NCBI GenBank assembly: GCA_032622095.1
Contig: CP136062.1
Coordinates: 11,929,710 to 11,993,709 of the forward strand
Reading direction: 5' to 3'
DNA length: 64,000 nucleotides
Source: Siphonodentalium dalli
Lineage: Eukaryota; Mollusca; Scaphopoda; Gadilida; Siphonodentaliidae
The position numbers and the translations under genes are program-made. A model generated the notes under the pieces. It was not told the DNA's origin and did not search any database. It was given only the letters and a program-made list of their open reading frames with translations. Positions 391 through 62,873 of this stretch are shown here, piece after piece. Positions within the stretch are counted from its first letter, which is position 1, and the number at the start of each line of letters is the position of its first letter.

Positions 391-3300
391 CTGGAAAACA
401 TTCCGAGTTATTATTATTATTATTACCATTTTAATATATTTAGCGGGACCAGACCAAGGTCCTAAGCTATATTTCCTTTAAACCACACCAGTGATTGACA
501 GGGCTTTCCGGAGTATATGCTAGCATCACCAAATTCACCCTCTGGGTACTTCATTCTGCTTAGACCTCATCTGCTATGGGAGACATAGATACAGATTGAA
601 GTTTCCAAATGTTAAATATTGTGATGTACACCCACTGGGAACCTCGATAATGCAATGTGCCGTCTGCCAATTTGGTGATATAGAGAAACTAGACTAAAAA
701 AGAAATAGAATCTTTGTGAAAAAGTTCTGTATAATTTGATAATAAAGAAACTTTCCAGAGAAGATGAGGACTAAGCAGAATGAGATCCCAGATGGTGAAT
801 TTAATGATGCTAGCCCGCTATGCAGGATAGCGTCACTAAATTCACCCTCTGGGAACCTCATTCTGCAAATGATAAGAACACTAAACTCAGGCTTGATCAG
901 ATGCTATAAGTAGATTGGCCGCTTTCCTCCGAAATCATTATGAATATGTTATGAAGCCCTGATTTCAGATTTAGAGGGATGCAAGGCTTTATGAAATCAT
1001 TATGAATATGTTATGAAGCCCTGATTTCAGATTTAGAGGGATTCAAGGCTTTATGAAATCATTATGAATATATTATGAAGCCCTGATTTTAGATTTAGAG
1101 GGATGCTCCAGTCTATATGGGGCTCTATATGGGTTAGAGGGATGCAAGGCTTTTGTATTGGGCAGGCTGAAAATATAGTGCCTGACATTTGCAGAATGAG
1201 GTCCCACTCCGCAAAGCATAACTAAATTCACCTTCTGCGGACCTCATTCTGCTTAGTGAATGTTCATACGACCACGATACAATCGTAAGTGGAAGGATTT
1301 CTGTCATAGGAAGTAACCGGTAGTTAGACTGCGCATGCTCACGTCAAAATCGCAAGTCCAAAAATAATATCAAGCACTGTTTGAATTTAGATTCAAAATC
1401 GTTGCGTATCCTTGGATACCTCCACTTGCGACGTAATCGCAGTCGTGTGTATGTAAAAATCACATGCTTTACGAACAACCTACGATATCATCATGTACGA
1501 TCGTGTGAACAAACTATCCATGATCTTGTTGGGCCCGATTACTCCACTTACGATTGTATCGTGGTCATCTGAACGTTCACTTAGGTCTTATCATCGGTAG
1601 AAATATTTTAGCCTCATTAGAAACTACATTCTGCTTAGGCCTTATCTTTTCTCAAAAGTTTTCTATAGAAACTTCTTCACATAGATTCTATTTCTTTTTT
1701 AGTATAGTTTCTCTATATCTCCAAATTGGCAGATGACACATTGCATAATCGAGGTTCCCAATGGGTGCACATCACCATCTGGGAACGTAAATCTGAGTCT
1801 ATGTCTCCAATAGCAAATGAGACCCAAGCCGACCACAGTCTATTATGCCTGACAGGCGAACTTTAGAAGTTTTGTAATATAAACTTCACCATTATTGTTG
1901 ATATGACCACTTACCGAGACAGACATCTTAAGATTACAGTATCATATGAGGTGTGAGTACTTACGGAGACAGACGTCTTGGGTTAGAAGCAGTTTTGTCA
2001 GCAGACGTTCACTGCTTTCATCGCTACAGCTGAAGTTTGTGGGGAACATCGGGTTTACGGTGTCATATGAGTTTTCACACAGTATATGACACAAGTCGAG
2101 CTGCGCCTTGTCATAACCGCATACAAATGCTGCGTTCTTTAACCTTGGTAAGTTACATGGCCGCTCTGTAAGTTAAACATAGCATATTATTCAATAATTT
2201 AATCATAAGGTGTCAATCCATGGAATACTTTAACCCTTTGAGTGCCAGGTCCCATTTTTGTATCAACCCATTTTCCCTGTGCCAATGCATTCTCTTATAT
2301 ATGCGAGTCGATCATTCTCCAAATGCCAGACACATTGGCCTAACAATTTTTCATCATTTGTTATTATTTTTTTACAATTTTAATTAATTTTTTCTTATAA
2401 TCTTTAACAGAATTATTTTGTAGGTTTAGTGCCAGGAATCTTACGTTTTACCTGGGCATCAAAATTATTACTATGAATACTTGGTGATAGTTTTGAGTTA
2501 TAACATGCCTAAGGTTTTATTCAGTTTGTTTTTAAATTTGCTATAGCATGGTAAATTAAGGCCGATGAGATCGGCCCCTGGCACTGAAAGGGTTAAAACA
2601 ATTGGCTGACACAGACTTTGTCATTTAGGTTATTTCTTGATAACCTAAATTTCTTGATTTCTTTATCTGCTACAAAAATGACAGCAGCGCCAAGTGACCA
2701 TGCCTATACCGTGTGCCTAAAAAATGTACATGGAAACTGTTTTGTTTCGATACTTCCTACCATTTATCATGAAATTTCTGCATCATAATTCCTTCAGGTA
2801 TGACTGTATTTACAATAACCGTACTACATGCTAATATTCAGTGCACAAGTAACCAGACAAATCAACAAGATGGAACGTTTGCAAATAAATGAAACAAGGC
2901 AATTAAAACTAACAAGGGTTTGTGCCACCGCAAGCCTTGAAATAGGGTGTCTGTCATTTGCAGAATGAGGTCCCCAGAGGGTGAATTTAGTGATGCTACC
3001 TCAGCTATCCGGTGCCACGTGGTGTGTGATCAGTTGTGACAAGCCAGTAAAAAATACTGAATTACCGACGAGACGCAATCATATAAGTCATTTGAGTTCT
3101 CACACAAGATATTACACAAGTAGAGCTGCGGTTTATCGTAACCGCAAACAAATGCTCAACGTGGTATGTTATACAATTTCAATAATAATAATAGTTTATT
3201 TTATATACTATTATCCACCAACATGCTCTAGTCGACATAAACAGTAGTTCTTTATATAAATCCCTCCTAGTGTATTTATTACCAGAACATTTAAATCCTG

Positions 3301-6300
3301 ATGAAAAGTTGTCGTTACAGACTTTGAACATGGAATTGAATTTAGAGAAGAAAATTAGGTTTATAACAAAAAAGTGAAGAACTTATTTTAATGTATGGAA
3401 TCTGTAAATCGTCGATTAGCGATATATTTCAGTTAAAACTGTGACAAAATATTTAAGAAATAAATACACTGCACATCAGCATGTATAGTAGAATTTGACC
3501 ACAAAGAAACTGACGCATCATCCTAAATCAATTTCTTTGTGATCAAATTCTACTATACACGCCGATGCACAGTGTATTTATTTCTTTTGTATTCGACTAT
3601 GTTTTGGTCGAAATTGTAGTGACAGACATGCAACCTGCTATATAATAGTCCAGTTTTTATCCCTGTGTAGTCATTAGCATGAACGTGCTGTACGACCCAT
3701 TCCCTGAGAAACAAATTAGGGTATCAGCCTAATTCCGCGCGCAAAGTTATGAACAAGAGCACCGTCAGGCATGGCTTAATACGCTTGTTGCAAAGTTGTC
3801 ATCTTTCAATTACTATCAAAGAAAATTGGCTATCAGGTACCAAACCCAACCAAATTCGAACTATACCTATATTTTGGTATGACTGAGCCACATACCAAGT
3901 TTAGTTGTGATCAGATAATCCAAACACAAGTTTTTCAAACGGGTGTATAAAAAGATTTGATACTGCAGGATACTGTATAGAAAATATATGTAGAACAAGT
4001 ACAATATAACATACATTCACGAAAATAAATTCATAGAAATTTATCCGGTGAAAATATACACTGACTGGATAAGTATATAGAGGATACCTACGGCTTTTGA
4101 CTGAATAGAAGAATTATCATGAGTGGGTACAAGCAAATACCGATATTCGATATTTGCTTGTACCCACAAATGATAATTCTTGTGTTCAGTCAAAAGCCGT
4201 AGGTTTCCTTTTTATTATATTCAGTTTCGTTATTTCAATTTACAATTATTTCTCTCATGCGATTGTTTTGCCAAATTAAATGCAGACGAAAAAGAATCAG
4301 CTGATTGACTCATCTCTGGCTCATAGAGAAAACACTACACGAAGCTCGATAACGCTCTGTAACGTGCATTCCCATAAGAGATCAGTACAGACTATCACCA
4401 TCTTAAAAGTACTCGATAGCAACGTAATGAGGGCTAATACGAAAAGCAAATAACATTTTGGTATTAGCTCGCTGGGACAAGCAATTGATACGCCGTTTAT
4501 TCCCCGACCCTTTAGAGCTATTTCACTGTAGAGCATATAATATAACACGGAACATGTTAATCTGACTTCTCACCTTGTACGATTGTTAGCGTGAAGTTAC
4601 AGTACGCCACATTCCCAGAAAAATCCTCTGCCCTGTATGAGACGAGGTGTTTACCAGGATCAAACTCTGTACTAGGGTGATGTGACCCCACGGCAGTGTC
4701 ATTCACTAACCCGACATTATCGTAGGCTAGCGGCAGCTTCCAGAACAATCGCTCTCTCTCCTGATTCGTTCTAGTCACCTGGTCGATTGGACAATAGTCA
4801 AACTTGGGAGGCTCAGAATCTGAAGAAAAAACAATAATCCAATTTGAATGAGGTCCCCAGGGCTGAATTTAGTGACGCTATCCCACATAACCATTTCACC
4901 CTCTGGGGACCACATTCTGCATGGCCTCACTGCTTTGGGAGACATAGACTCAGATTGAAGTTCCCAAATGGTGAATATTATGATGTACACCCACTGGGAA
5001 CCTCGATTATGCAATGAGTCATCTGCCAATTTGGGGATATAGAGAAACTAAACTAAACAAGAAATAGAACCTAAGTTTCTATAGAAATTTGTTAATAAAG
5101 AAACTTTCCAGAGAAGATGAGGCCTAAGCAGAATGAGGTCCCCTGAGGGTGAATTCACCCTCTGGGGGACCTCATTCTCCAAATGACAGACACGCTATAA
5201 TCAGGCTACCAGAACAATCACTCTCTCTCCTGATTCGTTCTAGTCACCTGGTCGATTGGACAATAGTCAAACTTTGGAGGCTCAGAATCTGAAGAAAAAA
5301 CAATAATCCAATTTTGGTTTAGAGATATTGCAACACTGTTTGCTAATATATATTATGTCTAACCCATAGAGAGCCCCATACAGACTAGAGCAGATGACAC
5401 GCTGTAGTCCATGCTTCCATCTGTGTGAGGCTCCCTGTGGGTTAAACATGAAACCCTCACATTCCACAGAGAGCCCCATATATACTGGAGCAGACCACAC
5501 TCTGTAGTGCATGCTTCCATCTGTGTGAGGCTCCCTGTGGGTTAAACATTACAAATCAACCATTACAAACACTCACCGTCGACCATCACTGTAACGAAAC
5601 ACACAGCCATCTGGCTGTATGAATCGACCATATATAACACTCACCGTCGACCATCACCGTAACAACACACACAGCCATCTGGCCGTATGAATCAACCATA
5701 TATAACACTCACCGCCGACCATCACCGTAACAACACACACAGCCATCTGGCCATACAAATCGATCATATATAACACTCACCGTCGACCATCACCGTAACG
5801 ACACACACAGCCATCTGGCCGTATGAATCGACAGCCTCATATATGATCTTTTGTTGCCCCATCTCGTCTTTTCCCGTCCATTTTATGACAGTTGAGGCCT
5901 TGTTGTTGTTGTACGGGTGACTCGAGGTCAGATCTAACAGGTCACCATACGAGTCGACAGCATACCATGTGACCAGCAGTTTGGATCGGTCTTTGTTTGA
6001 CGCCGTTTCTAATTTAATCACTTCATTATCGGGGCAGCCAACAAAGTGAGGACCAACTATAAAGAGAATGAACATTTAATCACTTCATTTTATTCCCATC
6101 TAAGAGCTCTTTCAAAGCGTAATTAAAGAGTGCAGAATTGACCAATATTACTAAATATGTCAAATATAATTGAATCTTTTTAAGAAATTCAACATTTTGT
6201 ACCGAATAATTTAGAAGTCGCGATGTCATAAATTTATTTAATTTCCAGCACATGATAATAACATCGAAATTAAACAAAGAAAATATATCTTGCATCGATT

Positions 6301-24300: not shown

Positions 24301-27300
24301 TTTCTATAACTTTCTCAACTTTTTAGACAATATTTGGCATAAATAAAAAAGATGTTTTCTGCATGATATTGACCAACCAGGTGTGCTTCTCCTGATCAGC
24401 ACTGTGGCCGGGATGGCTAATCAAATCATCAATAAACGAACATAACAAAATCCCTGTTAATTACTCCCCATTATCAACCTTGATGTTACATATACAGTAA
24501 TGCTCTAATTAATCGACCTCTTAACCAAAGCAGAATTATGGGTAACTTTTCAGGATTTAGTCGGAAATATGGCTTGTTGCCATTCATCAAAAAGCTCTCC
24601 CTGAGAGCTTTCCAATGAATGGCAACAAGCCATATTTCCGACTAAATCCTGAAAAGTTACCCATAATTCTGCTTTGGTTAAGAGGTCGATTAATTAGAGC
24701 ATTACTATACCTTTGAGGGCTGGGCTGGATAACGTCAAATCAAGTCATTGAGGGTTATAAAGTTAAACAACGATGGTTGCTTTTCGGCACAATAAACAGG
24801 ACCTGGTGCCAGACTTACCTGAGAGATACGATGGGTGGAACATGACGACACTAGTTGGCCGTGACAGGGTTAACGTACTCCAACTTACCTGAGAGATTTG
24901 ATGGGTGGAACATGACAACGCTAGTCGGCCGTGACAGATAATCAGCCAGGACTTCCTGATATCCCGTCTTTAAGCTCACCATAAACACTTTCTTGGAATA
25001 CCAATCAGAATAAACAAGAATGTCGTTCATCACATGAATACCATAAACGTGGAAGAGAGTGTTACTCAAGAACAGTAACTCTTGTTGTCTTGAACCTGTA
25101 ACAATAGATCGATCATCACATGTATATCAAGAACAGTAACTCTTCTTGTCTTGAACCTGTAAAGTTGGCACCCTGGAATGTTACACTATAGGGTTCCGGC
25201 ACTCAACTTGTTAAACTTAAATGGTCATTAACAGTTTGATATTGAAGCAGTTTCCTATCTTATATAATACAAGGTGATTTAGATGTCCAATTTGATCAAA
25301 ATAGATTGATTAACTCTTTCAGTGCCACGGGCCGGTCTCATTGGCCCTACTTTACGGTCTGTAGAGTGCCAGGGCTGATAAAATCGGCCCTAAAACAATT
25401 TGTTTTTGTTTTTTGGGTTATAGCGAATTTAAAAACAAACTGGATAAAACCTTAGGGGCATGTTATAACTCAAAAGTATCACTAAGTATTCATAGTAATA
25501 ATTTTGATGCCCATGAAAAACATAAGATTCCCTAGCACTAAACCTACAAAATAAGTCTGGCACTGAAAGAGTTAAAGAATATAAGAAAAAATTATTAAAA
25601 TTGTAAAAAATTGTAGAAAATAATAACAAATGATGAAAAATTGTTAGGCCAATGCATTCTCTTATATATGCGAGGCGACCTATGGTCGACTCGCATATAT
25701 AAGAGAATGCATTGGCACAGGGTATATGGGTTGATACAAAAATCGGACCTGGCACTCAAAGGGTTAAAGATTTCACCTACCATTCATATTCATTTTGAAT
25801 ATTTTTCCTTTGCCGTCAGCTATATAGATCGTCTTGTCAACGAGTGCCAGTGAGTTAGGCCACATGTGATCTCTTGTCATTAGTAAGGTACGATGTTGAC
25901 CGTTTCCCCGCGCTTTATAAACGTAACCAATAGACTTCCTCATGTTATACTCCGTCCATATAATCCATCTGAAAAGACATTATTTTATATTCATGGAGGG
26001 GAACAAGCCTTGAAATAGGGTGTCTGTCATTTGCAGAATGAGGTCCCCAGAGGGTGAATTTAGTGATGCTACCCCGCATAGCAGGCTAGCATCACCAAAT
26101 TCACCCTCTGGGAACCTCATTCTGCTGAGGTGTAAGCAGAATGAGGTCCCCAGAGGGTGAATTTGGTGATTCTAGCCCGCTATGTGGGGTAGCATCACTA
26201 AATTCACCCTCTGGGGACCTCATTCTGCAAATGACAGACACCCTATTTCAAGGCTTCGTGGGGGATCATGTGATTTCGAGGTTGGTGAGTACCACGCATT
26301 CAAAATGGCCGAGGCGAGTGGAAACACACAAAAATGTTATACATGAGGAACTTACTCAAAATATAGAATTTTGACCGTTAGGAGCAAACACTAGTTTATT
26401 TATTAAAATAAGATGATACCTTATTTCTTCAAAATACTCAGTAGTTTTCTGTAACATTCTGACCAAAGTTGCCAGTCGGAGGTTCGTGTAATACACCAGT
26501 GGATACATCTAGGAGAATCCTTCGACTGACAACTTTGGTCAGAATGTTAGCGCAAACAACTGTGAGATTGTAAACAAATGGGGTATCAGCTATTCTCGTA
26601 GCTGCCAAAATACTATGTCATATATTGACTTTAGTTGAATACATATCTGAAACATTCCATGGAATAATGGTCTACAGTAATGCCCTAAATAATCGACTCC
26701 TTAACCACAGTGGAATTATGGGTAACTTTTCAGAATTTAATCGGAAATATGGCTTGTTGCCATTCATCATAAAGCTCTCAATTCCAATGAATGGCAACAA
26801 GCCATATTTCCGACTAAATCCTGAAAAGTTACCCTTAATTCCACTGTGGTTGAGGAGTCGATTATTTAGGGCATTACTGTATTATTGATTTGGAGGCAAG
26901 ACTCCAAATAAGTGGTCTGACATTGTTAATTTGTCAGATGCTATGTCTGACATAATGTCAGGTTGATATTGACGTATTTAAAAAAAATATATCACTGGTA
27001 ATGTGATATTTTGCAAAATATATTGATATAGTGTGCTGTTAAATGAAATGTTAAATGTATGTTTGCATTTCGTAAGCATAGTATATGAAACATCGGACTG
27101 ACTAAGCAACTCACTTGTTTTGTAGTATCATTATCGTCGCCCGCAAATGTATGCTTGATTTAGATAATAAAATCTCGTCACGAAATGCGTCAAAAGAGCC
27201 TTTGAATATTTGTATAGTATGTAAGACATCAGACTAACTAAGCAACTCACTTATTCTGGGGACCCATTATGATCGCCCGAGGGGTATGCTTGCATTTCGT

Positions 27301-30300
27301 AAGCATGGTATATGAGATGGGACCTCGGTGGAGGTTAAGTCTACCAATATGTCCGCCACGATTTCCGTACGCTGTCCAGAATAATCGCTGCTTATCACTA
27401 TCTATAGCAAGTCCATCGACAAAATATCCGACATCGTAAAGTACGATTGGCTTTATCTCCTTCAGTGATGACGACATGATGGTTTTCCTGAAAGAGAATA
27501 AAAGTCCTTTATTATCAGCCTATGTGTCTAACCCATAGAGAGCCCCACACAGACTGGAGCAGACGACACTCTGTAGTGCATTTAAACATTAAACATTATC
27601 AGTGAGGTTTGAGATGAATGTCTTACATTACTGATCAAGCCTACAAACAGTGTGTCTAACCCATAGAGAGCCCCACACAGACTGGAGCAAACTACACTTC
27701 ACAGTGCATGATTCCATCTGTGTGAGGCTCCCTGTGGGTTAAACATTAAACATTATCAGTGAGGTTTAAGATGGATGCCTTAATTACTGACCAAGCCTGA
27801 GTTTAGTGTGTCTATCATTTGCAGAATGCACTGACACATGATCTTTAATGCTGCAGGAGCACATCTCCCATCATGAAAGGTCTAATAACACTCCAATAAA
27901 GAGATTTCTTATATCAAAATATCAATTGTTATGTAACATTATTGTCACATTGCAATCCTGAGTTTAATGTGCCAGTCATTTGCAGAATGAGGTCACCAAA
28001 GGATAAATTTAGCGGGCTAGCATAATCAAATTCACCCTCCATGTGAAGAAGTTTCAAAAAAATTTTGAATAAAGAAACTTTCCTGAGAAGATGAGGGCTA
28101 AGCAGAATGAGGTTCCCAGAGGGTGAATTTAGTGATGCTAGCCTCGCCCTCTGGGGACCTCATTATGCAAATACTCAGGCCTGTTACATTGAAATTACCG
28201 ATAAACATCCAATTATAGCGGGCTAGCATCACCAATTATAGGTCAATCAAAGGTTAAAAGGTCAAAGCGTGGAAAAATATTCCGAAAATCATATTCAGAT
28301 TAAAATATTTCAACTTAGTTCACAATTATAAGTTTGTTGACAAATCACCAGTTTTATTCACATATTAAATATATTATAAAACAATGGTTTCATCATGTGA
28401 TATTTTGTTATTAGTGGTGCTGTTTTAGCGGGCTAGCATCACCAAATTCACCCTCTGGGAACCTCATTCTGCTGAGGTGTAAGCAGAATAAGGTCCCCAG
28501 AGGGTGAATTTGGTGATGCTAGCCTGCTATATTGATATTTTTGTAAGTTCATATTTTCTTCCGTTCATCGATCAAACAACCATGCAGTTCTTTGGGTACT
28601 TGTTTAACCCTTTACCCAACAGAACGGCCCTGTGCCAATGCATAGGTCGCCTCGCATATATAAGAGAATGCATTGGCTTAACACATTAAAAATTATAAAA
28701 TTGTTAAAGAATGTAAGAAAAAATGATAAAAAGTGTTAAAAAAAAGATTTTTTTTAGGCCAATGCATTCTCTTATATATGCGAGGCAACCTATGGTCGAC
28801 TCGCATATATAAGAGAATGCATTGGCACAGGGCATAACTGTAACCATCACAATGTGGTCAATGAGCCGGTTCCAATGATATCCATATTTGTATGGTTTTA
28901 TTGAGACAGACCAAAGATATTTTAGGCTGTTGAAGCTTTATTTGGCCGGTTTGTTGGGTAAAGGGTTAATACTGGCACACTAAACTTAGGCTTGGTCAGT
29001 AATTAAGGCATCCATCTTAATATGCGACCGATGTTTAATACTGGCACACTAAACTTAGGCTTGGTCAGTAATTAAGGCATCCATCTTAATATGCGACCGA
29101 TGTTTAATACTGGCACACTAAACTTAGGCTTGGTCAGTAATTAAGGCATCCATCTTAATATGCGACCGATGTTTAATACTGGCACACTAAACTTAGGCTT
29201 GGTCAGTAATTAAGGCATCCATCTTAATATGCGACCGATGATCAATTGTATTGCAGTTTCGTCAGTGATATCAGAACTACAAAAGAAAAATAGTCTGAAT
29301 TGAAGCAGACAGCAATTATTTATGGCAACATTTCAATCTCGTGCCGACATAGTGGTGTGCATTTATGTATAAAACGTTACGACAACCACCCCATTAGCGT
29401 TACTGACTGTGCGAGACCCTTATGTATAAATCGTTACGACAACCACCCCATTAGCGTTACTGACTGTGCGAGACCCTTATGTTCCTTTAACCCTTCCATG
29501 GCGGGAGCTGTGCTGGTGCAGCATTAATGATCCTGTGCCAGTAGAGAGCCTCGCATATATATGAGAATGCACTGACTTACTATGTCAAGATAAATATAGT
29601 TAGGCTAATGTATTCTCTTATATATGGGAGCCTCGCATATAAAGAGAATGCTTTGGAACAGGGTTTTTGAAAAATTTCAGGAAGCTAAAGTCATGAAGGG
29701 TTAAACTACCCTTATGGAGCCCCTCACAAATGTGAGCAGACGACACTCAGCAATATAAGCTGCCACCTGTATGGGGCTCCCTACAGGAAGCTCCAGTCAT
29801 GAAGGGGTTAAACTACCCTTATGGAGCCCCTCACAGATGTGAGCAGACGACACTCAGCAATATAAGCTGCCACCTGTATGGGGCTCCCTACAGGAAGCTC
29901 CAGTCATGAAGGGGTTAAACTACCCTTATGGAGCCCCTCACAGATGTGAGCAGACGACACTCAGCAATATAAGCTGCCACCTGTATGGGGCTCCCTACAG
30001 GAAGCTCCAGTCATGAAGGGGTTAAACTACCCTTATGGAGCCCCTCACAGATGTGAGCAGACGACACTCAGCAATATAAGCTGCCACCTGTATGGGGCTC
30101 CCTACAGGAAGCTCCAGTCATGAAGGGGTTAAACTACCCTTATGGAGCCCCTCAAAGATGTGAGCAGACGACACTCAGCAATATAAGCTGCCACCTGTAT
30201 GGGGCTCCCTACAGGAAGCTCCAGTCATGAAGGGGTTAAACTACCCTTATGGAGCCCCTCACAGATGTGAGCAGACGACACTCAGCAATATAAGCTGCCA

Positions 30301-39300: not shown

Positions 39301-42300
39301 CAAATTGGCAGACGACACATTGCATAATCGAGGTTCCCAATGGGTGTACATCACAATATTCACCATTCTGAGTCTACGTCTCCAATAGCTGATGAGACCA
39401 TGCAGAATGAGGTCCCAAGAGGGTGAATTTGGTAATGCTAGCCCACTATGCGGGATAGCATCACTAAATTCACCCTCTGGGGACCTCATTCTGCAAATGA
39501 CAGGCACACTAAACTCAGGCTTGCTATCATGATATTGTTACTTCTCCCAGATAAAGTCCCCAATAACCAAACAGGGAGAAGTGACTTCTCCCAATATTAA
39601 ACCTCAAGGCTGGTCCCTGTAGCGCCCCCTAGTGGAGAGATACTCACTGTTAAATTAAACTGGACCCTTATATCGAGTATGCTTTCATCTTTAGTGTCAT
39701 ACAGTCCCTGTAGCGCCCCCTAGTGGAGAGATACTCACTGTTAAATTAAACTGGACCCTTATATCGAGTATGCTTTCATCTTTAGTGTCATACAGTCCCT
39801 GTAGCGCCCCCTAGTGGAGAGATACTCACTGTTAAATTAAACTGGACCCTTATATCGAGCATGCTTTCATCTTTAGTGTCATACAGTCCCTGTAGCGCCC
39901 CCTAGTGGAGAGATACTCACTGTTAAATTAAACTGGACCCTTATATCGAGTATGCTTTCATCTTTAGTGTCATACAGTCCCTGTAGCGCCCCCTAGTGGA
40001 GAGATACTCACTGTTAAATTAAACTGGACCCTTATATCGAGTATGCTTTCATCTTTAGTGTCATACAGTCCCTGTAGCGCCCCCTAGTGGAGAGATACTC
40101 ACTGTTAAATTAAACTGGACCCTTATATCGAGTATGCTTTCATCTTTAGTGTCATACAGTCCCTGTAGCGCCCCCTAGTGGAGAGATACTCACTGTTAAA
40201 TTAAACTGGACCCTTATATCGAGTATGCTTTCATCTTTAGTGTCATACAGTCCCTGTAGCGCCCCCTAGTGGAGAGATACTCACTGTTAAATTAAACTGG
40301 ACCCTTATATCGAGTATGCTTTCATCTTTAGTGTCATACAGTCCCTGTAGCGACCCCTAGTGGAGAGATACTCACTGTTAAATTAAACTGGACCCTTATA
40401 TCGAGTATGCTTTCATCTTTAGTGTCATACAGTCCCTGTAGCGCCCCCTAGTGGAGAGATACTCACTGTTAAATTAAACTGGACCCTTATATCGAGTATG
40501 CTTTCATCTTTAGTGTCATACAGCAGAATTTGCGGAGAGATGTCGGTTCTGTTTTTACAGTCTGTGATGAAGAGGTGATCCTCATGAAAAAATAAACCAA
40601 ACGGGCTGACAACATTCTTCTCGATGATAACCGTCGGTGACGAACCATCTAACAATGTTCTCATAACCTTAGGCTGGTGTCCTATGTCACTATAATACAG
40701 GAATCTACAATGAAGAGAATAGACTGGGGTGCTATTATATAGATAATACATGGCTTGGAGTTGACTACCTTACTCGTATTTAAATTCGCGCAGAACTATT
40801 TTCAAAACTGAGCAAAAAATAGTAGGAATCCTGAGTTCATACCAAATTTCCAAAGGGAAAATAAGAGGGTTATGTTAATGAGTTGCATACATTACGGAAA
40901 ATTGGATTGAATAGACATTTGTATTCACATGTGGACATCCAATGCCAACACCATTATTCGCTTGTAAAGCAATTATTCATGGTAAAATGTTTGATTTTGC
41001 GTTGCTTGTATAACATCCACATGTACATTGAAGTCTCATGATGCTTCCCACTAATAAATAACATGGCAATCTGAAACCGAATGTGGTGCTTAATGTGTAG
41101 TGTATAAGCTCTATGGTCGAAGGGATATAACTCTAAAAATTTACGCGATCTGAAAACCCACGTGGGCCTTGTTATATGATTATATCCCTTTGTTTCAACC
41201 AATATGTGGATGCTTAACTCAATCACTGGTTCATGTTACATGTCAGTAATAGGTGCCTGCTATATATATGTGGATGCTTAACTCAATCACTGGTTCATGT
41301 TACATGTCAGTAATAGGTGCCTGCTATATATATGTGGATGCTTAACTCAATCACTGGTTCATGTTACATGTCAGTAATAGTTGATGCTGTATACATGTAG
41401 GTAGATGAGAACTACGCATTCCCCTATTAAAGGATCAAATAAGCCGACAGGTGTTTGTTTGCAAACATGCAGATCATCCACCTAACATCTCACACATGGC
41501 AACAATAACACATGCATGAGTATGCATGATTGTTTGAACAATATTTATTATCAGTTATCACTGTTCACTAATTTTGACAATGTGTCGAAAAGGTGCTTAG
41601 AACATGGAGAGGGTTACATAAACAAGACTGAAATAGTGTGTCTGTCATTTGCACAGCAGGTTAGCATCACTAAATTCATCCTCTGGGGATCTCATTCTGC
41701 TTAGGCCTCATCTTCTGGAAAGTATCTATAGTATCAAATTAACATTATTTTAGTTACTTTTTCCATTCCTTTCAGTGTATTTATCTCCTAATTTGCAGAA
41801 GATAAAATGCATAATCGAGGTGACTAATGGGTGAACATCACCAACTTCAACTAAGGAACTTCAGTCTGATCCCAGGTCTCCCAAAGCAGTTGAATTAGAA
41901 GATGCGACCTCGGCGGATATCATTCTGCAAATATCAGATACACTATTTCAATGATTCATGTGTCGATAGATCCGATCAGTATGTTAACTTGTTATGCACT
42001 CAAATATGTTGCAGCTGGGCTGGTCACATTGCGATAACTGTTTTATTATATGAAACGAGCTTTGATTGAACAAGACGTTGTTGCCATTCATTGGAAAACT
42101 CCCCGTGAGAGCTTTCCGATGAATGGCAACAAGCCATATTTCCGACTAAATCCTGAAAAGTTATCCATAATTCTGCTTTGATTAAGGAGTCGATTATTTA
42201 GGGCATTACTGTAGAATATATCGCGAATCACCACTTTCTATTGTCTTGTTATGTATTCAGCAGTGGAGGGGGTAACATACCCGTTTATAGAATCGATCGC

Positions 42301-45300
42301 GAGTCCAGCGGGTCTCTCGGCAGATGTCACGACTGTGCGTCGTCTCGTCTTGTCCAGACTGATCTTCTCGATTCGTTGCCATGTGTACGCCATTCCGTCG
42401 TTATCAGGGTGGGACTCCCCAGTGTTGGTGAAGTATAACTCCTGAGTCTCCCAGTTCAATGCCATTCCTGAAAACATAGAACCAGTGTGTTCAACCCATA
42501 GAGAGCCCCACATAGACTGGAGTAGACGACACTCCGTAGTGCATACTTCCATCTGTGTGAGGCTCCCTGTGGGTTAAACATTAAACCATATCAACAGGTA
42601 ATCCTGAAAACATAGAACCAGTTTGTTCAACCCATAAAGAGCCCCACATAGACTGATGCAGTCGACACTCCGTAGTGCATGCTTCCATCTGTGTGAGGCT
42701 CCCTGTGGGTAAAACATTAAACCATATCAACAGGTAATCCTGAAAACATAGAACCAGTGTGTTCAACCCATAAAGAGCCCCACATAGACTGGAGTAGACG
42801 ACACTCCGTAGTGCATACTTCCATCTGTGTGAGGCTCCCTGTGGGTAAAACATTAAACCATATCAACAGGTAATCCTGAAAACATAGAACCAGTGTGTTC
42901 AACCCATAAAGAGCCCCACATAGACTGATGCAGACGACACTCCGTAGTGCATGCTTCCATTTGTGTGAGGCTCCCTGTGGGTTAAACATTATCAGTGAGG
43001 TTTGAGATGGATGTCTTACATTGCAGTTCAATGCCATTTCCGAAAACAGAGATAATTGAATGCCAATTTAATAGCATAAATTATTACTATTATTTTTACA
43101 ACATCGAATATATGTTATTTCAAATCAACTCACATATATTTCCAAAGGTAATGGTGAAAAAACACGTAAAATCCAAGCCAGAGTTTGGTGTGTATAACCC
43201 ATAGTGAGCCCCACATAGACTGGAGCAGACGACACTCCGTAGTGCATGCTTAATCTGTGTGAGGCTCCCTGTGGGTTAAACATTAGACTTTATCAGTGAT
43301 GATTGAGATGGATGTCTTACATTACTGACTAAGTCTGGATATATTGTGGGCTAGCGTCACTAAATTCACCCTCTGAGGACCTCATTCCGCAAATGACACA
43401 CATGGCTTAACCCTTCCCTGACTGGAGCTTCCTGAATTTTTTAGAAAACCTTGTGCCAATGCATTCTCTTATAAATGTGAGTCGCCCATATATAAAATAA
43501 TACATTGGCCAAAATTTTTTTACCTTGATCTTGTAAGTCAGTTCATTCTCTTATATTATATATACGAGGCTCATGGGTTTTTGCTCACTAAAATGTGTAC
43601 ATCATTGATGAATAATATGTCAATTGGAAATTTAAATACTGTCTCATACTGTACATCTGAAAATTTGACAGGCACCATTTTGAAATTACCATCAATTTGG
43701 TGCCGGTCAATTTGACAGGCAGTAAAAAAAATGTTTTGAGCTTAGTGCAGGATCTGTAGTGTAGTGTACTAGTATCGGGTTCTACTTCAACAGTGCGCAC
43801 AAACCATTTTACTGAATCAATTATTATTCTGTAAGGACCTCCTTACATATATATATATATATATATATATATAAGAGAATGCATTGGCATAGGGTTTTCG
43901 CCAAAATTCAGGAAGCTCCATTCATGAAAGGGTTATTGGTTTATTTTCGTAGTTTTATGTCCATGATAAATTTGCTAACAAATTAGTGACCATATTCCTG
44001 ACAATTAACTCACAAAATACTCAAGCCTGCAAATATCGTGCATAATGGGCTAGCATCACCAAATTCACCTTCTGGGGACCTCATTCTGTTTAGGCCCTCA
44101 ACTGCTATGGCAGACCTAGGATCAGATTGAAGTTGGTGATGTTCACCCATTGGGCACCTCGATTATGAATTTTATATTCTGCAAATTAGGGGATATAGAA
44201 ACTTCCTAGAAGGGAAATGTAACTAAAAACAATGTTAATTTGATACTATAGATACTTCCCAGAAGATCAGGCCTAAGCAGAATGAGGTCTCCAGAGGGTG
44301 AATTTGGTGATGCTAGCCCACTATGCAGGATGGCGTCACTAAATTCACCCTCTGGGGAGTGGGGACCTCATTCTGCAAATGACAGACACGCTAAAGTCAG
44401 GCTTGAAAATACTGTTAGGCTCAAACACAAACCATTGAACATTCACGGTTTTCCACCAGACAATGTCCGATGGCAGGCTGTTTAATCCAGGTCAATGATT
44501 CCACATTAGGAATAGGGCCATTAACCCTGTCATGACGGGAGCTGCGCTGGCGTAGCATTAAAAACCCTGTGCCAGTGCATTCTCTTATATATGTGAGGGG
44601 TCCCCATATGATGCTCGTATATGTAAGAGAATGCATTGACCTAAAAAATTTATATTATTTTGTATAATTGTAAAAAAATGTAAGAAAAAATGATAAAAAA
44701 ATAAAGAGAATGCACTGGCACAGAGTTATCACCAAATTTCAATAAGCTTAAGTCATGGGAGGGTTAAAATAAAATATATGTATTCTCAGGCAATGAGATC
44801 TTAAATATATGTATTCTCAGGCAATGAGATCTTAAATATATGTATTCTCAGGCAATGAGGTCTAAAATATATGTATTCTCAGGCAATGAGATCTTAAATA
44901 TATGTATTCTCAGACAATGAGATCTAAAATATATGTATTCTCAGGCAATGAGGTCTAAAATATGTATTCTCAGGCAATGAGATCTTAATTTTGAGATGAG
45001 GAAGGGGGGCTATTTATTATTATTTTTTCTCAAATATGGAAAATATAACAGAAAATGCTGAAAAAAAAATGTTTGACATGGCTTTTTAAAAGAAATTTTC
45101 AGCAGCGACGGAGGTGCCTGAATGAAGTGGGAGGTGCCTGAGTGATGAGGGAGGTGGATGAGTGACGAGGGAGGTGCCTGAATGACGGGGAGGTGCCTAA
45201 GTGACGAGGGAGGTTGATGAGTGACGAGGGAGGTTGATGAGTGACGAGGGAGGTGGATGAGTGATGAGGGAGGTGATTGAAAACACAGAATTTTTTTATT

Positions 45301-51300: not shown

Positions 51301-54300
51301 GAGGAACAGTTTGTGTGGTTGCTTCACTATGTGTCATGTATGATTCATATTAGCTCTGTTATTAATACTGCATGCTGTTTGAAAGCAGATAACAGGAACC
51401 TGTAGCGAGCCCTGACAGGCTTAAGCAGACGACGGTCAGAAGTTAATGTTGCTAGCTTTGTGGGGCTCACTGCAGGGGAGGACTGCTCTATAACAAGAGG
51501 TACGCTGTCGCGTGGCATTTGCCCCCGACCGTAGCAATTCGGATTAAGCACAATCATCACTTCTAGAAATTCCGGAAAGCCAAAAACAAGCGATCCGGAA
51601 ACCCAAAAACAAGCGAAAATTCAAATTTTCTAAGTTGAAAAAAGGGCCATAACTCTGGCAAAAATCGTCAGATCATACCCAAATTCGCACTTGACATGTA
51701 TTTTCATATACCTGATCCACAAAAATACGGGATTTGCAATCGTACCACCAAAGCTCACGCTATGATCTGGAAACCCCAAAAAAACAAGAGAAAAATTGAA
51801 TTTTCTAAGTAAAAAAGGGCCCTAACTCTGGTGAAAATGGGTGGACGAAACCCGTGCTATACATGTAGCTGTTCCCCCTTGCTGCTCTATCACCATACCA
51901 TATATCAGCTAAATCTGCCCAGCGGTTGCTGAACAATAATGCAAAATGTTTGTACGGACGACAAATTTAGTTTTCCAAGTCAAAAAAGGGCCATAACTCT
52001 GGTGAAAATGGGTGGACGAAACCTGCGCTATGCATGTAGCTGTTCCCCGATGCTGCTCTATCACCATACCAAATATCAGCTAAATCTGCCCAGCGTTTGC
52101 TGAACAATAATGCAAAATGTTTGTACGGACGTAGACGTCGACTATATACCTGCCGACTTCAAGTCGGGGGCATAATAATTCATACCAGAATGCACTGGGA
52201 ACCCATAGGGAGCCCCTGACAGACCAAAGCAAACAAAACCAGAAATGATTGCTTCTATGTGTGTGGGGGTCACTGCAGGGGAGATTCATACCAGTTGTAG
52301 AGGATCGTATACAATGGCATGAGGCTGCTTGCTTCTTCCGACAAGGGTAAAATCAGGAGACTGTGCCCCTTCAAGGGAGATAAATCCGACATCACCAGAT
52401 TCGCTCATCGTATACAACAAGATCTCATCAGGTACTGAAAAGAGATAAAGAAACAAATAAACATGTATTATAACCCAGATGCCCCCCTCCACACATCAGA
52501 AAAGACAATTAACACTATCCCATACATTATAGTAATACGTAAAATATGAACCCTTTACAAAGTTGAGCAGACGACACTTTCCAGTACATGCTACTATCTG
52601 AGTGTAGCTCTATCTTAAGATGTATCACTGTATCCCATAAAGAGCCCCCCAAACAGCAGAGCAGACGGCACTCTCCAGTACATGCTTCTATCTGAGTGGG
52701 GCGCTTTATGGGGTACACCGTACCTGTAGCTCTATCTATAAAGCATTAAATGTATCACCGTATCCCATAAAGAGCCCCACCCCCCCCCCCCCCACAACAG
52801 AGCAGACGACACTCTCCAGTACATGCTGCTATCTGTGTGGGGTGCTTTATGGGGTCCAATAATAATCTGATTGCTGTCTGTTAATAAACCCTTTCATGAC
52901 GGGAGCGGCGCTTGTGCAGCATTAAAGATCATGTGCCAGTGCATTCTCTAAGACTTATTTATGGGAGACTTGCATATGTAAGAGAAAATATTGGCACAGG
53001 GTTTTCGCAAAATTTCAGGAATTGAGCTCCAGTCATGGATAGGTTAAAAGAGTAGTCGATCATGAGATAAATAAACATCTCATTTAACCCTTTTAGTGCC
53101 AGGGGCCGATCTCATCGGCCCTAATTTATGGTCTGTAGAGTGCCCTAAAAAAAATTTAAAAAATGATTTTTTTGGATTTTTTAATTTTTGGGTTAGGCCA
53201 ATGCATTCTCTTATATATGCGAGGCGACCTATGGTCGACTCGCATATATAAGAGAATGCATTGGCACAGGGTATATGGGTCAATACAAAAATCGGACCTG
53301 GCACTCAAAGGGTTAATTAAAGGATAAATAGAATTTAATGCTTCAAAATTAATGCTGCAAAAGATACATTTTCAGTTATGTATTAGAGAAAGTCCCACAA
53401 GTATTCCGGTGCTGGATGATTCAGATTATTTTTTAACCCCTTGGCGAGTAGAATGACACATATGTCGCCGTAAGGTTCACGAGTAGAACGACATATATGT
53501 CGTTTCAAGAAATGTCATTTTTATGTAGACATAACTTCAATTGATCATCTGATTTATAAATGATTTTTACAGGAGATATTTTGATTAATATAATGTCCCA
53601 ATGTATAAGTGCAAGAGATTATGATAGCACACATAAACAGAAAATACACAAAAATTAAAACTTCTGACCCAAATTTGTAAATAATTAGTGACGTCATGTA
53701 TATAAGTTATAGATACTCTCCAAAGGGTTAATCTTCATGACCATTTAAAATAAAAACGAAGCTTTTGCATGATTTCACATCGAATTGAAGCCGACTGATG
53801 GGGTCATTGCATGTTACAAGGGATCGATCACATTCATAGCCAGCTTTTCAAGATGATCTTAGGATCATTCAGTAATGCCCTAAATAATCGACAACTTAAC
53901 CACAGCAGAATTAAGGGTAATTTTACAGGATTTAGTCGGAAATATGGCTTGTTGCTATTCATCGGAAAGCTCTCACTCAGAGCTTTCCGATGAATGGCAA
54001 CAAGCCATATTTCCGAATAAATCCTGAAAAATTACCCATAATTCTGCTGTGGTTAAGGCATCAATTATTTAGGGCATTACTGTATTCCATTGCTGACATA
54101 TTTACTTGGACAGACAGGCAAACTCAATCCAGTATACTCCCCCCCCTCCATTTTGTTTCATAAGATCAGGCCTTACCTGTACAAACTTTTCCATCATAGT
54201 CGAGTGTTAATCCGCCAAATGTTGGACACGCACACCTGTAACCTTCACCGTCCTCTGGGAGGCATAGATGGGAACAGCCTCCATGTTCACTTAAACCACA

Positions 54301-56653
54301 TGGGTGCACTCCTAAAATGGAGTAAAATAAAGAATGTCTAACTCAAACCACACGGGCGCTCTCCTAAAATGGAGTAAAATAAAGAATGTCTCACTCAAAC
54401 CACACGGGCGCTCTCCTAAAATGGAGTAAAATAAAGAATGTCTCACTCAAACCACACGGGTCTCTCCTAAAATGAAGTAAAATAATGAATTGTCTATATC
54501 TTATTACCATGTAGGTTACCTGTATATCTTATTACCATGTAGGTTACCTGTATATCTTATTACCATGTAGGTTACCTGTATATCTTATTACCATGTAGGT
54601 TACCTCTATATCTTATTACCATGTAGGTTACCTCTATATCTTATTACCATGTAGGTTACCTGTATATCTTATTACCATGTAGGTTACCTGTATATCTTAT
54701 TACCATGTAGGTTACCTGTATATCTTATTACCATGTAGGTTACCTGTATATCTTATTACCATGTAGGTTACCTCTATATCTTATTACCATGTAGGTTTAA
54801 CTAGGTTACCTCTATATCTTATTACCATGTAGGTTACCGATATATCTTATTACCATGTAGGTTACCGAAATTAGATATCAAGCAAGTCTGCAAATAGCAA
54901 GTCTGTCATTTGCAGAATGAGGTCCCCAGAGTGTGAATTTAGTGATGCTATCACGCAAAGCAGGCTAGCATCACCAAATTCACCTTCAGTCTGCTTAGGC
55001 CTCATCTTCTGGAAGTATCTATAGTCTCAAATTAACAATGTTTTAGTTACTTTTTCCCTTCTGGGAAGTTCACGGAGGAGAGGGGAATCACGTGGTTTCG
55101 AGTTGATGAGTATCATGCATTCAAAATGGCAGAGGCGATCGAAAATGCGACCAGAAACGAGGATAAAGGTAATAAACTAAGATAATGATATATTATATAG
55201 GATTTTGTCAGCAATGAGCAGATGCTATACTATTTTTCAACCAAGCTGATACATCACATGTGTCCAAATTCACAGCTTTTTGCTCTAACATTATAAATAA
55301 TTATCTTTTTACTGACTCAAAATGACAGGCACCAAATGGATGGTGTTGGTCATTTCAAAATGGTGCCTGTCAAATTTTCAGATGTACTGTATGAGACAGT
55401 ACTTAAATTTCCAATCGACTTATTATTCAATGATGCGCACATTTTAGTGAACGTCCAATTGCCACCCAGGAAAAACCCATGTTATTTTTGTTTTCAAAAT
55501 GAAGTTCAACAACTTTACGTTGATTAATAAATACACATGCAATTCGACATAATTATATTCACTATGAATTTATCTGAAATTAAAAAAGAACTCTCGAGAA
55601 AATTCATCGCTTCTGCCTCAAGCATATCCAGGGACTTCCTGTACGTGCTCGCACTGACATCGTTTTGGGGATGCTTGGCATCCACCCTATCAAGTCATTG
55701 ATTGATGCCAGGAAACTCAATTTGTTTGGAAGCCTATGCCGTATGCCTCCTGGCAAAGCTTGCAAGGAAATTTTTGTCACAAGACTTCACATGTACTTCA
55801 CGGGACAACTGGAAAACCCAAATTCCTTCATCAGCGACATTAACAACACTCTTGTTGAATACAACCTATCCGAGCATATGCATCAGTATGCTCATTTCTG
55901 CTCATTTCCTCTGAAATCCGAATGGAAACGCATTACAAAAACCGCGATTAACGACAAATGCGTACAGAAATGGACAGAGAGAACAAATTGTGACACTTCA
56001 TTTGCGCGTTTTCGAGAAATTCAACCAAACCCTACTATGTGTCACTTATGGAGAACATGTCGTAAATACCCTATGCATAAGATTGCATTTATCACAGTCG
56101 GTCAGCTCATCGCAGGAAGCGCATTCTCTCAACAAAACACATGCACATTATGCTGTCAGTCACACTCTGATATTATCGAGCACGCACTTATCTCATGCAG
56201 TAGCCCACTTATGCATTCCCACAGAAACGAAATGTGGTACCAGATGATTGATCGTTTCGGCATACCGCTATTCGTATGGGCCACGAGTCTCAGCAACAGC
56301 GACCTCGTATTGCTCCATCTCACACATCTTCCACGTGATATATTCACATTTCTTGAGCAAGTTGAGGATACATCAAAGTTTACGAGATTCATTGTTCTTC
56401 ACACAAACTTAATTTGGAGGCGCTATGTCGAACTCTCAGCCACTACGCATGACGGTTTGTGTTAAACAACCTTTGATCTTTGAAGTTTGAACGTTACGGG
56501 TGTTCACCATAAGTCGTACTTAAATGTACCACATTCTGTCCTGTCCATAAAATCCGAAGACGACAAATTAAATAAACATGAATAAATTAATAAATCATTA
56601 TATATATATGTATGCATAGGTATGTGTATATGAGGGTGTGATGGTGTGTGTGT

Positions 56654-56739
<86 letters not shown>

Positions 56740-59700: not shown

Positions 59701-62700
59701 AGAGATTAGTGCGTCCGAGATCAGATATCTCCAGCGTCCAGTATCCCGCTGCCGTCCCAACTAATGTTGAATGTATACTCGTTGTGTGCCATGAACTAAT
59801 GTAGGCAGAGTTACTGAACAAGGCCAGCCCATAGTTCTCATTTCCTCCAGTTATATCGGTTAGGTTCGCCTCAATGTGGATGTCTGTTCCATCGAGGCTA
59901 CACGATATTATTTGATGTAACTCCCCGTCGACCCAGTACAAACGCCTGGGAAAGAAAGGTGCAAACAACATTCTTTAACAATTTTGATCATTTTTTATCA
60001 TTATTTCTTACATTCTTTAACAATTTTCTATCATTTTTTTCATTTATTCTTACATTATGTAACAATTATAAAAAATAATATAAAATTTGTTAGGCCAATG
60101 CATTCTCTGATATATGCGAGGCAACCTATGGTTAACTTGCATATATATGCGAGGCGACCTATGGTCAACTTGCATATATAAGAGAATACACAGCGTTTTC
60201 GCAAAATTCAGGAAGCTCCCATCATGAAAGGATTAAAGTTGCATAATCCGAATTAATGCTCGCAAATTACTATTTCCTTGGCTTCGGGGGTCAAAAATAT
60301 TTGATTCAAGTCGAGGAACTCACCCATCAAAGTTCAGAGTGATCAGATATCAATTTTTTAAATCTATTATTTTTCACCACCGATACTTTTAATGGCCCAG
60401 ATTGCGGATGAAGATGGATAACTCTAAAATCAAGTGGCTTTTTTGTGTCAGATATTTGACAAACCGGCATAATTTCGTTGAACAAAATGTTGATAAATAA
60501 CATGTTTTGGGCAATTTTATACCAGAGTTTACTGTGGAATAGCATTATTTTTGGGCAATTAATCGATTCTGATAACTGAAGCAGCATAACAACAAAACAA
60601 AAAAAAACAAATTCGTTGTTGTTGGAATCTGATGATATGGGGACCATCGAATCGGATTGAGTACCTTTAACCCTTTCAGTGCCAAGTCCGAGCTCTTTCC
60701 ATCAATGTATCACATTATTATAATCAATAAATTTGAAAAATGATCAAGGAAATATGGGTTGGTACAAAAAACGGACTTGGCACTGAAAGGGTTAAAGGAT
60801 GGTGTAGGTCATAATTTAGAAATAAAAGTTACGAAATTATGAAAATTTCTGTTGTCAGCTATTATCACCTTAACCCGTTCATGACATGAGCAGCGCTGGT
60901 GCAGCATTAAAGATACTGTGCCAGTGAATGTATTGGCACAGAGTTTTCACAAAATTTCAGGAAGCTCCAGTCATGAAAGGGTTACAATACCCTTATGGAG
61001 CCTCCCACAGATGTGAGCAGACGACACTCACCAATACAAATTGCCACCTGTATGGGGCTCCCTACAGGAAGCTCCAGTCATAGAAGGGTTAAAGATATGG
61101 ATGGCCTTGATTATAGATTATAACTTAGAAACAGTCCTTCCCAGGAGGAAAACACAACAAGAGCACTTATTTGATCCCGCAATTCATAAGACGGGTGTAA
61201 CTGCACCCTGTAATATAATCATAAGTTGGGTGTTTCTCAAACAAATTGTCATAATGGGACATACATGTACATGTAGTCACACTTTCACATGCCCATAATT
61301 GAATTGAAACAGATAAGGATAAAAATAAACCTTCAAATAGTTAAATATTGAATCAACGATTACAGTCATCATAATCATTTTGACAAGAGGTACGAGTGCA
61401 CATTTTAGCACCCGTGAATTGAAAATTGCGAGTGTGTGCGGTTGCGAGAACAATCGCTCCTGTCTCCTGGGAAGGACTGTTAGAAATAAAAGTTACCAAT
61501 TATGAAAATATTCTCAAGAGTATACTAATAGTATATAGTAATGCTCTAAGTAATTGACTCCTTAACCACAGCAGAATTATGTGTAACTTTTCAGGATTTA
61601 GTCGGAAATATGGCTTGTTGCCATTCATCGGGGAGAGCTTTCCGATGAATGGCAACAAGCTATATTTCCGACTAAATCCTGAAAAATTACCCATAATTCT
61701 ACTGTGGTTAAGGAGTCGATTATTTAGAGCATTATTGTAGTATAATGATAGTATGAATGCGATGTTATCCACAAAACACACTTTGTGTGAGAAAAAAAAT
61801 GCAGTTTGATTATGTTCGTTTGTTTATATACAACCAATTCTGTAACAGAATTTGCCTTTTGTTTACTTGACACATCATATGAACTTGACAATAACATACT
61901 ATTTATGCAATATTTATGATTGGTATAAGAACAAGGTCGGTCTATATTTTAATATACTTTCTGTTTAATGCAGATTTAACGGATGCGACTATTTTAACAG
62001 CAATAACCACCACGAAGACCATCTGTGCCTATATGGAATAATCTTCATTATAACACTCCTGTATGGAGCCTCACATGGACCCAAGCAGACGACAGTCATC
62101 AGTGCATTGTTCTCTCTGTATGGGGCTCCATGAAGGGTTATATGGAATAATCTTCATTACTGATGTAATTAAACTGTATAAATCACGAACAAATAAATCA
62201 CGAAGAACTTACACTGTGTTATTATATCAGGAATGACGTTGCCAGGTTGGCAAATATTCCAAGTGGTGAAAAATAACAGATTTCAAAAATTGAAATCTGA
62301 GTAGTCTGGGATATGATTGTTGGGTTCCTCGACTCAAATCTAACATTTTTTACCCGAAGCCAAAGAAATAGTAATTTAGGGTCGTTAAAATCGGATTATG
62401 CTTCTTTAAAAGTGTCCTTAATATTTTTGTTTTGATACAGCAGGATTCGAGACCAGCATATAAACCACGAAATTTACCCTGAATTTACGGTGAATTGACT
62501 TACATAGTAGTATAATTGACTTACATTATAATTGACTTACATAGTAGTATAATTGACTTACATAGTAGTATAATTGACTTACATAGTAGTATAATTGACT
62601 TACATAGTAGTATAACTTATGGCTAACTGATTTGGTTTAATTTACTGTGAAGTGACTTACATAGTAGTATAATTGACTTACATTGTAGTATAATTGACTT

Positions 62701-62873: not shown

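What the first reader, a model, noticed from the sequence alone, without database searches (positions are those of the whole stretch)
1906..62744. At least nine of 21 exons have a splice-junction edge duplicated in tandem
Donor edges of exons 1, 7, 11, 13, 18, 20 and acceptor edges of exons 3, 6, 13, 19 are repeated next to the live junction, from one decayed copy to ten near-perfect copies. Units always contain exon bases plus the splice site. Generic minisatellites would not be expected to straddle exon borders so often. This suggests a locus- or genome-wide process seeding tandem repeats at splice junctions, or retention of extra sites as decoys or alternative sites.
Basis: partly seen in the sequence, partly recalled or inferred. 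Interest (0 to 1): 0.88.

Follow-up and report, generated by a model that had tools for sequence, protein, structure and literature searches.

The report
Tandem repeats overlapping exon edges
In one long animal gene whose introns are packed with local repeats, ten of 42 exon edges have been copied next to themselves; this is best read as ordinary repeat growth tolerated at exon borders, with a mild local excess that only a genome-wide count could turn into a real process.

Summary
I rebuilt the gene on the minus strand: 21 exons, one open frame of 1338 codons, an LRP-like YWTD/EGF receptor. Exon 20 is weak (15/16 bp), and the exon-6 array units hold only two exon bases.

About 23-36% of the window is locally duplicated, so counting edges that lie in any repeat gives no excess (6-8 seen, 9.5-14.9 expected). 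The fairer test counts founding units that straddle an edge: 5-9 seen, 2.8-4.4 expected, and 9 against 2.75 with dispersed elements removed (p 0.001). Slower decay of copies anchored to an exon explains about 1.4-fold of this. No common breakpoint distance was seen. All 32 intact extra sites tested would bring in a stop codon.

Best reading: neutral tandem duplication tolerated at exon edges. A bias toward splice junctions is possible but unproven from one locus; the host genome could not be reached.

The parts
62745..62873 (-). exon 1 (YWTD repeat)
   Evidence: open frame; Ldl_recept_b best stretch
62482..62781 (-). exon 1 donor array: 21-bp units with GTAAGT, nested in a larger duplicate (offset 141) that carries 37 exon bases; 10 extra donor-like sites
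   Evidence: TRF; alignments; site list
54177..54311 (-). exon 3 (EGF-like)
54289..54496 (-). exon 3 acceptor array, 52-bp unit, three extra acceptors with 10-29 exon bases
   Evidence: TRF
42281..42467 (-). exon 6
42466..42991 (-). exon 6 acceptor array, 136-bp unit containing a dispersed fold-back-like element, three extra acceptors with only 2 exon bases
   Evidence: TRF
43024..43052 (-). older copy of exon 6 acceptor edge, 26/29, AG lost
40467..40704 (-). exon 7
   Evidence: LRP2 match runs across it
39613..40523 (-). exon 7 donor array, ten 91-bp units (57 exon + 34 intron bases), about 99% identical
   Evidence: TRF
27251..27487 (-). exon 11
27078..27161 (-). copy of exon 11 donor edge, offset 136, 66/85 identical
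24889..25095 (-). exon 13, both edges copied
25127..25162 (-). copy of exon 13 acceptor edge, 35/36 (6 intron + 30 exon bases), separated by 25 bp
24813..24867 (-). copy of exon 13 donor edge, 50/55 (49 exon + 6 intron bases), separated by 15 bp
5781..6056 (-). exon 18 (HYR-like by eye only; the Pfam HYR stretch lies in exon 19)
5550..5832 (-). exon 18 donor array, 68-bp unit, three extra donors
   Evidence: TRF
4574..4819 (-). exon 19 (HYR)
5205..5314 (-). copy of exon 19 acceptor edge, 107/110 (26 intron + 84 exon bases); about 360 bp with dispersed-element sequence lies between the two matching stretches
1965..2165 (-). exon 20
1909..1924 (-). short decayed copy of exon 20 donor edge, 15/16

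Best explanation
The copies come from ordinary local duplication (tandem duplication, then array growth by slippage or unequal exchange; short spaced copies probably from break repair) in a genome where such events are frequent in introns. A duplication inside an exon usually damages the protein and is lost. One that straddles an exon edge is tolerated: the extra splice site, with its exon scrap, falls into the intron, and the exon-side copy still gives the intact message. The exon-side copy is held constant by selection, so these duplications stay recognisable longer than purely intronic ones, which raises their apparent number. Shown: the copies, their position on the intron side, the open frame with the exon-most site, the stop codons if other sites are used, the high local duplication background in this window. 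Inferred: the mutational process, neutrality, that the exon-most site is the one used, that the rest of the genome is like this window. A modest extra bias of new duplications toward exon edges is not excluded.
For: 23-36% of the window is locally duplicated and edges are hit no more often than that predicts. Exonic bases are covered much less than intronic ones (0.07-0.11 against 0.24-0.37), as expected if duplications inside exons are purged. Extents on either side of the junction vary widely (exon side 2-84 bp, intron side 6 to about 134 bp), so no fixed anchor is seen. Eight of 32 non-straddling clusters end within 100 bp of an exon. All 32 intact extra sites tested would add an in-frame stop within the extension. 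A simulation gives 1.37-fold longer detectability for edge duplications. Live sites with copies do not differ in strength from the rest for donors (p 0.76) or significantly for acceptors (p 0.10).
Against: In collapsed coordinates, founding units straddle edges more often than chance: 9 against 3.8 (p 0.008) and 9 against 2.75 with dispersed-element sequence removed from both sides (p 0.001). The excess is also seen among copies at least 95% identical (4 against about 0.7, p about 0.005), where slow decay should matter least, and is weaker among copies under 90% (4-5 against 2.2, p 0.06-0.16), the opposite of what slow decay predicts. With the 1.37 factor the nominal Poisson p is still about 0.015. 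Counts are small and some settings give p 0.05-0.18.
Confidence: 0.62

Rival explanations
1. A mutational process seeds tandem duplications preferentially at or near exon edges (for example breaks at R-loops or stalled replication at splice junctions, or repair using AG/GT microhomology). The arrays then grow freely because they lie in introns.
For: Founding-unit excess of about 1.6- to 3.4-fold, in copies at least 95% identical about 5-fold though only 4 cases. Terminal copies pile up from about 40 bp inside the exon to 150 bp inside the intron and drop by 200 bp.
Against: One locus chosen because it looked striking. No excess by coverage. No common breakpoint distance. Arrays ending beside exons without straddling are also common. 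Part of the excess is expected from slower decay. Microhomology at breakpoints was not tested.
Confidence: 0.17
2. The extra sites are kept because they work, as decoys, as spare sites that strengthen exon definition, or as a switch to non-productive messages.
For: 32 extra sites with the signal intact were scored, one further copy has lost it. Pooled core positions are less diverged than the rest of the copies (7/207 against 62/765, p 0.01; sliding-label p 0.002-0.004). Every use tested would give a premature stop, as a non-productive switch would need.
Against: With one copy per family the difference is not significant (p 0.11-0.14). Copies were recognised partly because the junction region still matches. 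Copied donors are not weaker than uncopied ones (p 0.76). The array at exon 7 is too uniform to show retention.
Confidence: 0.11
3. The arrays are assembly artefacts, at least in copy number.
For: The 91-bp array is nearly perfect over ten copies.
Against: Two of its copies carry their own variants. Most other families are diverged by 3-22%, which repeated misassembly would not make.
Confidence: 0.04

Closest known systems
[quoted passage not shown] title seen in reference lists, the paper itself not held)
   Same: A tandem repeat whose units serve as splice donors at an exon edge (by title and a citing passage).
   Different: In IFI6, two downstream repeat units serve as donors and give different protein isoforms (passage of PMC4526556). 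Here all tested extra donors lead to stop codons, several exons of one gene are affected, and acceptors are copied too.
[quoted passage not shown] ATP2A1, fission yeast, potato RdRp; passages of PMC4974935 and PMC3443670)
   Same: Tandem duplication of sequence with splice signals, with the extra copy removed by splicing so the protein is unchanged. The potato case duplicated an existing intron-exon structure.
   Different: Here the duplications add copies inside existing introns; no new intron is evident in the model.
Internal direct repeats in new Daphnia introns attributed to staggered break repair (abstract and passages of PMC4202315)
   Same: Short direct repeats in introns, including repeats of terminal exon bases.
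   Different: Those repeats of terminal exon bases are 4-12 bp at the opposite end of a new intron; here most units are about 20-140 bp beside the edge itself.

Membership tests
IFI6-type splice-donor minisatellite | tandem array overlapping the exon's donor edge, a donor consensus in each unit | tested here: met
   exons 1, 7 and 18
IFI6-type splice-donor minisatellite | extra units usable to give coding isoforms | tested here: not met
   in-frame stop for all 24 extra donors tested; one of the ten extra sites at exon 1 was not in that test but lies beyond the same stop
IFI6-type splice-donor minisatellite | extra units used as donors in transcripts | not testable with these tools
   no RNA data available
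Intron gain by tandem duplication | a new intron lies between the two copies of the duplicated exon segment | tested here: inconclusive
   copies lie at the edges of introns and only the exon-side copy is in the open frame; no relative was available to show intron age
LRP-like receptor (host gene) | YWTD (Ldl_recept_b) repeats with EGF-like modules | tested here: met
   Ldl_recept_b E 4.2e-24 and FXa_inhibition above cut-off; LRP2 match E 4.3e-75 for the segment of exons 4-9
Random tandem-repeat overlap | edge overlap no higher than at random positions | tested here: inconclusive
   met by coverage; not met by several founding-unit settings

The most novel reading that the evidence does not exclude
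In this animal's genome new tandem duplications arise preferentially at exon edges, so splice sites are continually multiplied and supply spare donors and acceptors. That would be an ongoing source of alternative sites, exon-edge shifts and new introns.
Probability: 0.14. Interest if true: 0.8.

Novelty: new member of a known kind. Interest (0 to 1): 0.42.

Why it matters
Splice-site arrays are known to me from single cases such as IFI6. A gene with ten copied edges gives a natural set for testing whether tandem repeats favour exon borders and how the spliceosome picks one of up to ten near-identical sites. If the excess held genome-wide, it would give a concrete mutational source for alternative splice sites and for intron gain by tandem duplication.

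Tried and rejected
Exon search with strict splice scores printed no candidate and was redone with looser ones. A first joined frame had one stop because an end of exon 16 was wrong; one search mends my model. Early edge tests used slightly wrong ends for exons 16, 17 and 20 (off by 1-10 bases), and one search also lacked exon 12; and later use the corrected model. A first conservation test of decoy cores contained self-alignments and was discarded; one search replaces it. In one search the exon-20 copy and short alignments are included, and copies of one family are not independent; for exons 1 and 7 only one extra copy each was used.

Simple coverage as the only null was rejected as incomplete: the live edge must lie in the terminal copy, so founding units are the proper events. 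The shift null in expanded coordinates overstates the excess and was replaced by collapsed coordinates. Filtering dispersed repeats on one side only (9 against 1.95, none of 20000 shifts) is biased toward edges and was replaced by filtering both sides.

Searches through dispersed-repeat words found nothing: one word in genome contigs, two in viral contigs. Literature searches turned up no listed title about tandem repeats at several exon edges of one gene; these are word searches of open-licence papers only, mostly seen as listings, of which passages of five papers were read.

Full report
Gene model. The window is eukaryotic, with a gene on the minus strand. Open frames bounded by AG and GT were joined into 21 exons (list in note) and tested: 4017 bases, 1338 codons, no stop across the 20 junctions. 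Pfam finds Ldl_recept_b, FXa_inhibition (EGF-like), Ephrin_rec_like and HYR above their cut-offs, also DUF5050 and SGL. The segment of exons 4-9 matches LRP2 in the PDB set at E 4.3e-75, residues 40-321 of the 333 given. The gene probably runs beyond both window ends (inference). The species is not known; a bivalve is my guess from memory and rests on no call.

The ten edges. Alignments anchored at each edge show the following. Exon 1 donor: 21-bp units, nested in a larger duplicate at offset 141 that carries 37 exon bases. Exon 3 acceptor: 52-bp units, three extra. Exon 6 acceptor: 136-bp units with only two exon bases, plus an older 26/29 copy whose AG is lost. Exon 7 donor: nine extra 91-bp units. 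Exon 11 donor: one copy, 66/85. Exon 13 acceptor: 35/36. Exon 13 donor: 50/55. Exon 18 donor: three extra 68-bp units. Exon 19 acceptor: 107/110, about 360 bp away across dispersed-element sequence. Exon 20 donor: 15/16. A self-BLAST of the whole window, not aimed at edges, recovers 8 of these 10 at E 1e-3 and 9 at E 0.1, and no other edge of the 42.

Chance, first null. Local duplication is everywhere here. With offsets up to 250, 700, 1500 or 6000 bp, 23, 28, 30 or 36% of bases have a same-strand copy nearby; 7, 8, 8 and 8 edges are covered, where circular shifts of the 42 edges give 9.7, 11.6, 12.5 and 14.9. An ungapped scan agrees (6-7 seen, 9.5-12.9 expected).

Chance, second null. That count is dominated by the interiors of long arrays. 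An edge can only be copied if the founding unit contained it, and then it sits in the terminal copy. Counting terminal copies gives 8-9 seen against 2.9-3.0 expected at offsets up to 700 (p 0.003-0.01); wider margins around the junction lower this to 6-7 seen against 2.6-2.8 (p 0.015-0.06). Array growth also lengthens the window, so I collapsed arrays and left exon interiors out: 5-9 seen against 2.8-4.4 expected over all identities, p 0.008-0.18 by setting, and 2-4 against 0.4-0.9 for copies at least 95% identical, p 0.005-0.06. Removing dispersed elements from both sides gives 9 against 2.75, p 0.001; at 95% identity 4 against 0.73, p 0.005. A stricter definition of dispersed sequence leaves 8 against 2.66, p 0.003. 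So a modest excess is present, against my preferred reading.

How much of the excess is trivial. The live copy at an exon edge is under selection, so its duplicate is recognisable longer. A simple simulation gives a factor of 1.37 (ungapped, substitutions only, no deletions). With it the Poisson chance of nine or more is about 0.015 from 2.75, or 0.08 from 3.82; with a factor of two it would be 0.1 and 0.36. Against this explanation, the excess is not stronger among old copies. The finding was also picked because it looked striking. Seeding therefore stays open, not shown.

Is the splice site the anchor? The extent of the copies on the two sides of the junction varies from 2 to 84 exon bases and from 6 to about 134 intron bases (unit length, alignments). 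Terminal copies are raised over a zone from about 40 bp inside exons to 150 bp inside introns and fall off by 200 bp. Of 41 duplication clusters at E 0.1, 9 straddle edges and 8 of the other 32 end within 100 bp of an exon; after removing dispersed elements the figures are 9 of 32 clusters and 4 of the other 23. This points to exon neighbourhoods as places where arrays stop, as much as to junctions as seeds.

Are the extra sites kept? I tested 24 extra donors and 8 extra acceptors with intact signals; one further acceptor copy has lost its AG. All 32 would add an in-frame stop, before the live edge for acceptors and 1-13 codons after it for donors. Ten extra donors exist at exon 1, of which nine were in that test. 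Mismatches in splice cores are 7 of 207 positions against 62 of 765 elsewhere in 17 copies (p 0.01), but with one copy per family 5 of 109 against 44 of 518 (p 0.11). This is inconclusive. Site strength does not differ between copied and uncopied edges for donors (p 0.76) or significantly for acceptors (p 0.10).

Known cases. Human IFI6 has a minisatellite that supplies several donors (title and a citing passage seen). Tandem duplication is a described route to new introns (passages), and short direct repeats are common in new Daphnia introns (abstract and passages). The present locus resembles the first in anatomy, but its extra sites do not encode isoforms. It is best called a new, unusually rich member of a known kind.

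Limits. Only one locus could be examined. There were no RNA data, no relative and no reads.

Noticed in passing
39613-40523: Nine of the ten 91-bp units at the exon 7 donor carry CCACTAGGGGGCGC on the gene strand, which resembles the CTCF consensus as I recall it; the pattern searched occurs nowhere else in the window.
   Followed up: partly
836, 2973, 8169, 17004, 23107, 26046 and others: A dispersed, palindromic MITE-like element with 14 exact copies of an 18-base word (CCCAGAGGGTGAATTTAG or its reverse complement) in 9 three-kilobase bins.
   Followed up: partly
5364-5549, 7031-7479, 29678-30750, 42466-42991: A second fold-back-like element (GGGAGCCTCACACAG... and relatives) seems, by eye, to sit inside the units of four separate tandem arrays (units).
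   Followed up: no
17875-21712: Long diverged arrays of about 164-bp units.
   Followed up: no
55584-56462: Plus-strand open frame of 293 codons without a Pfam match; possibly part of a retroelement (guess).
   Followed up: partly
4846-5204 and 42468-43023: At exons 19 and 6 the spaced edge copies lie on either side of element-bearing sequence, which may mean element insertion between older tandem copies.
   Followed up: no
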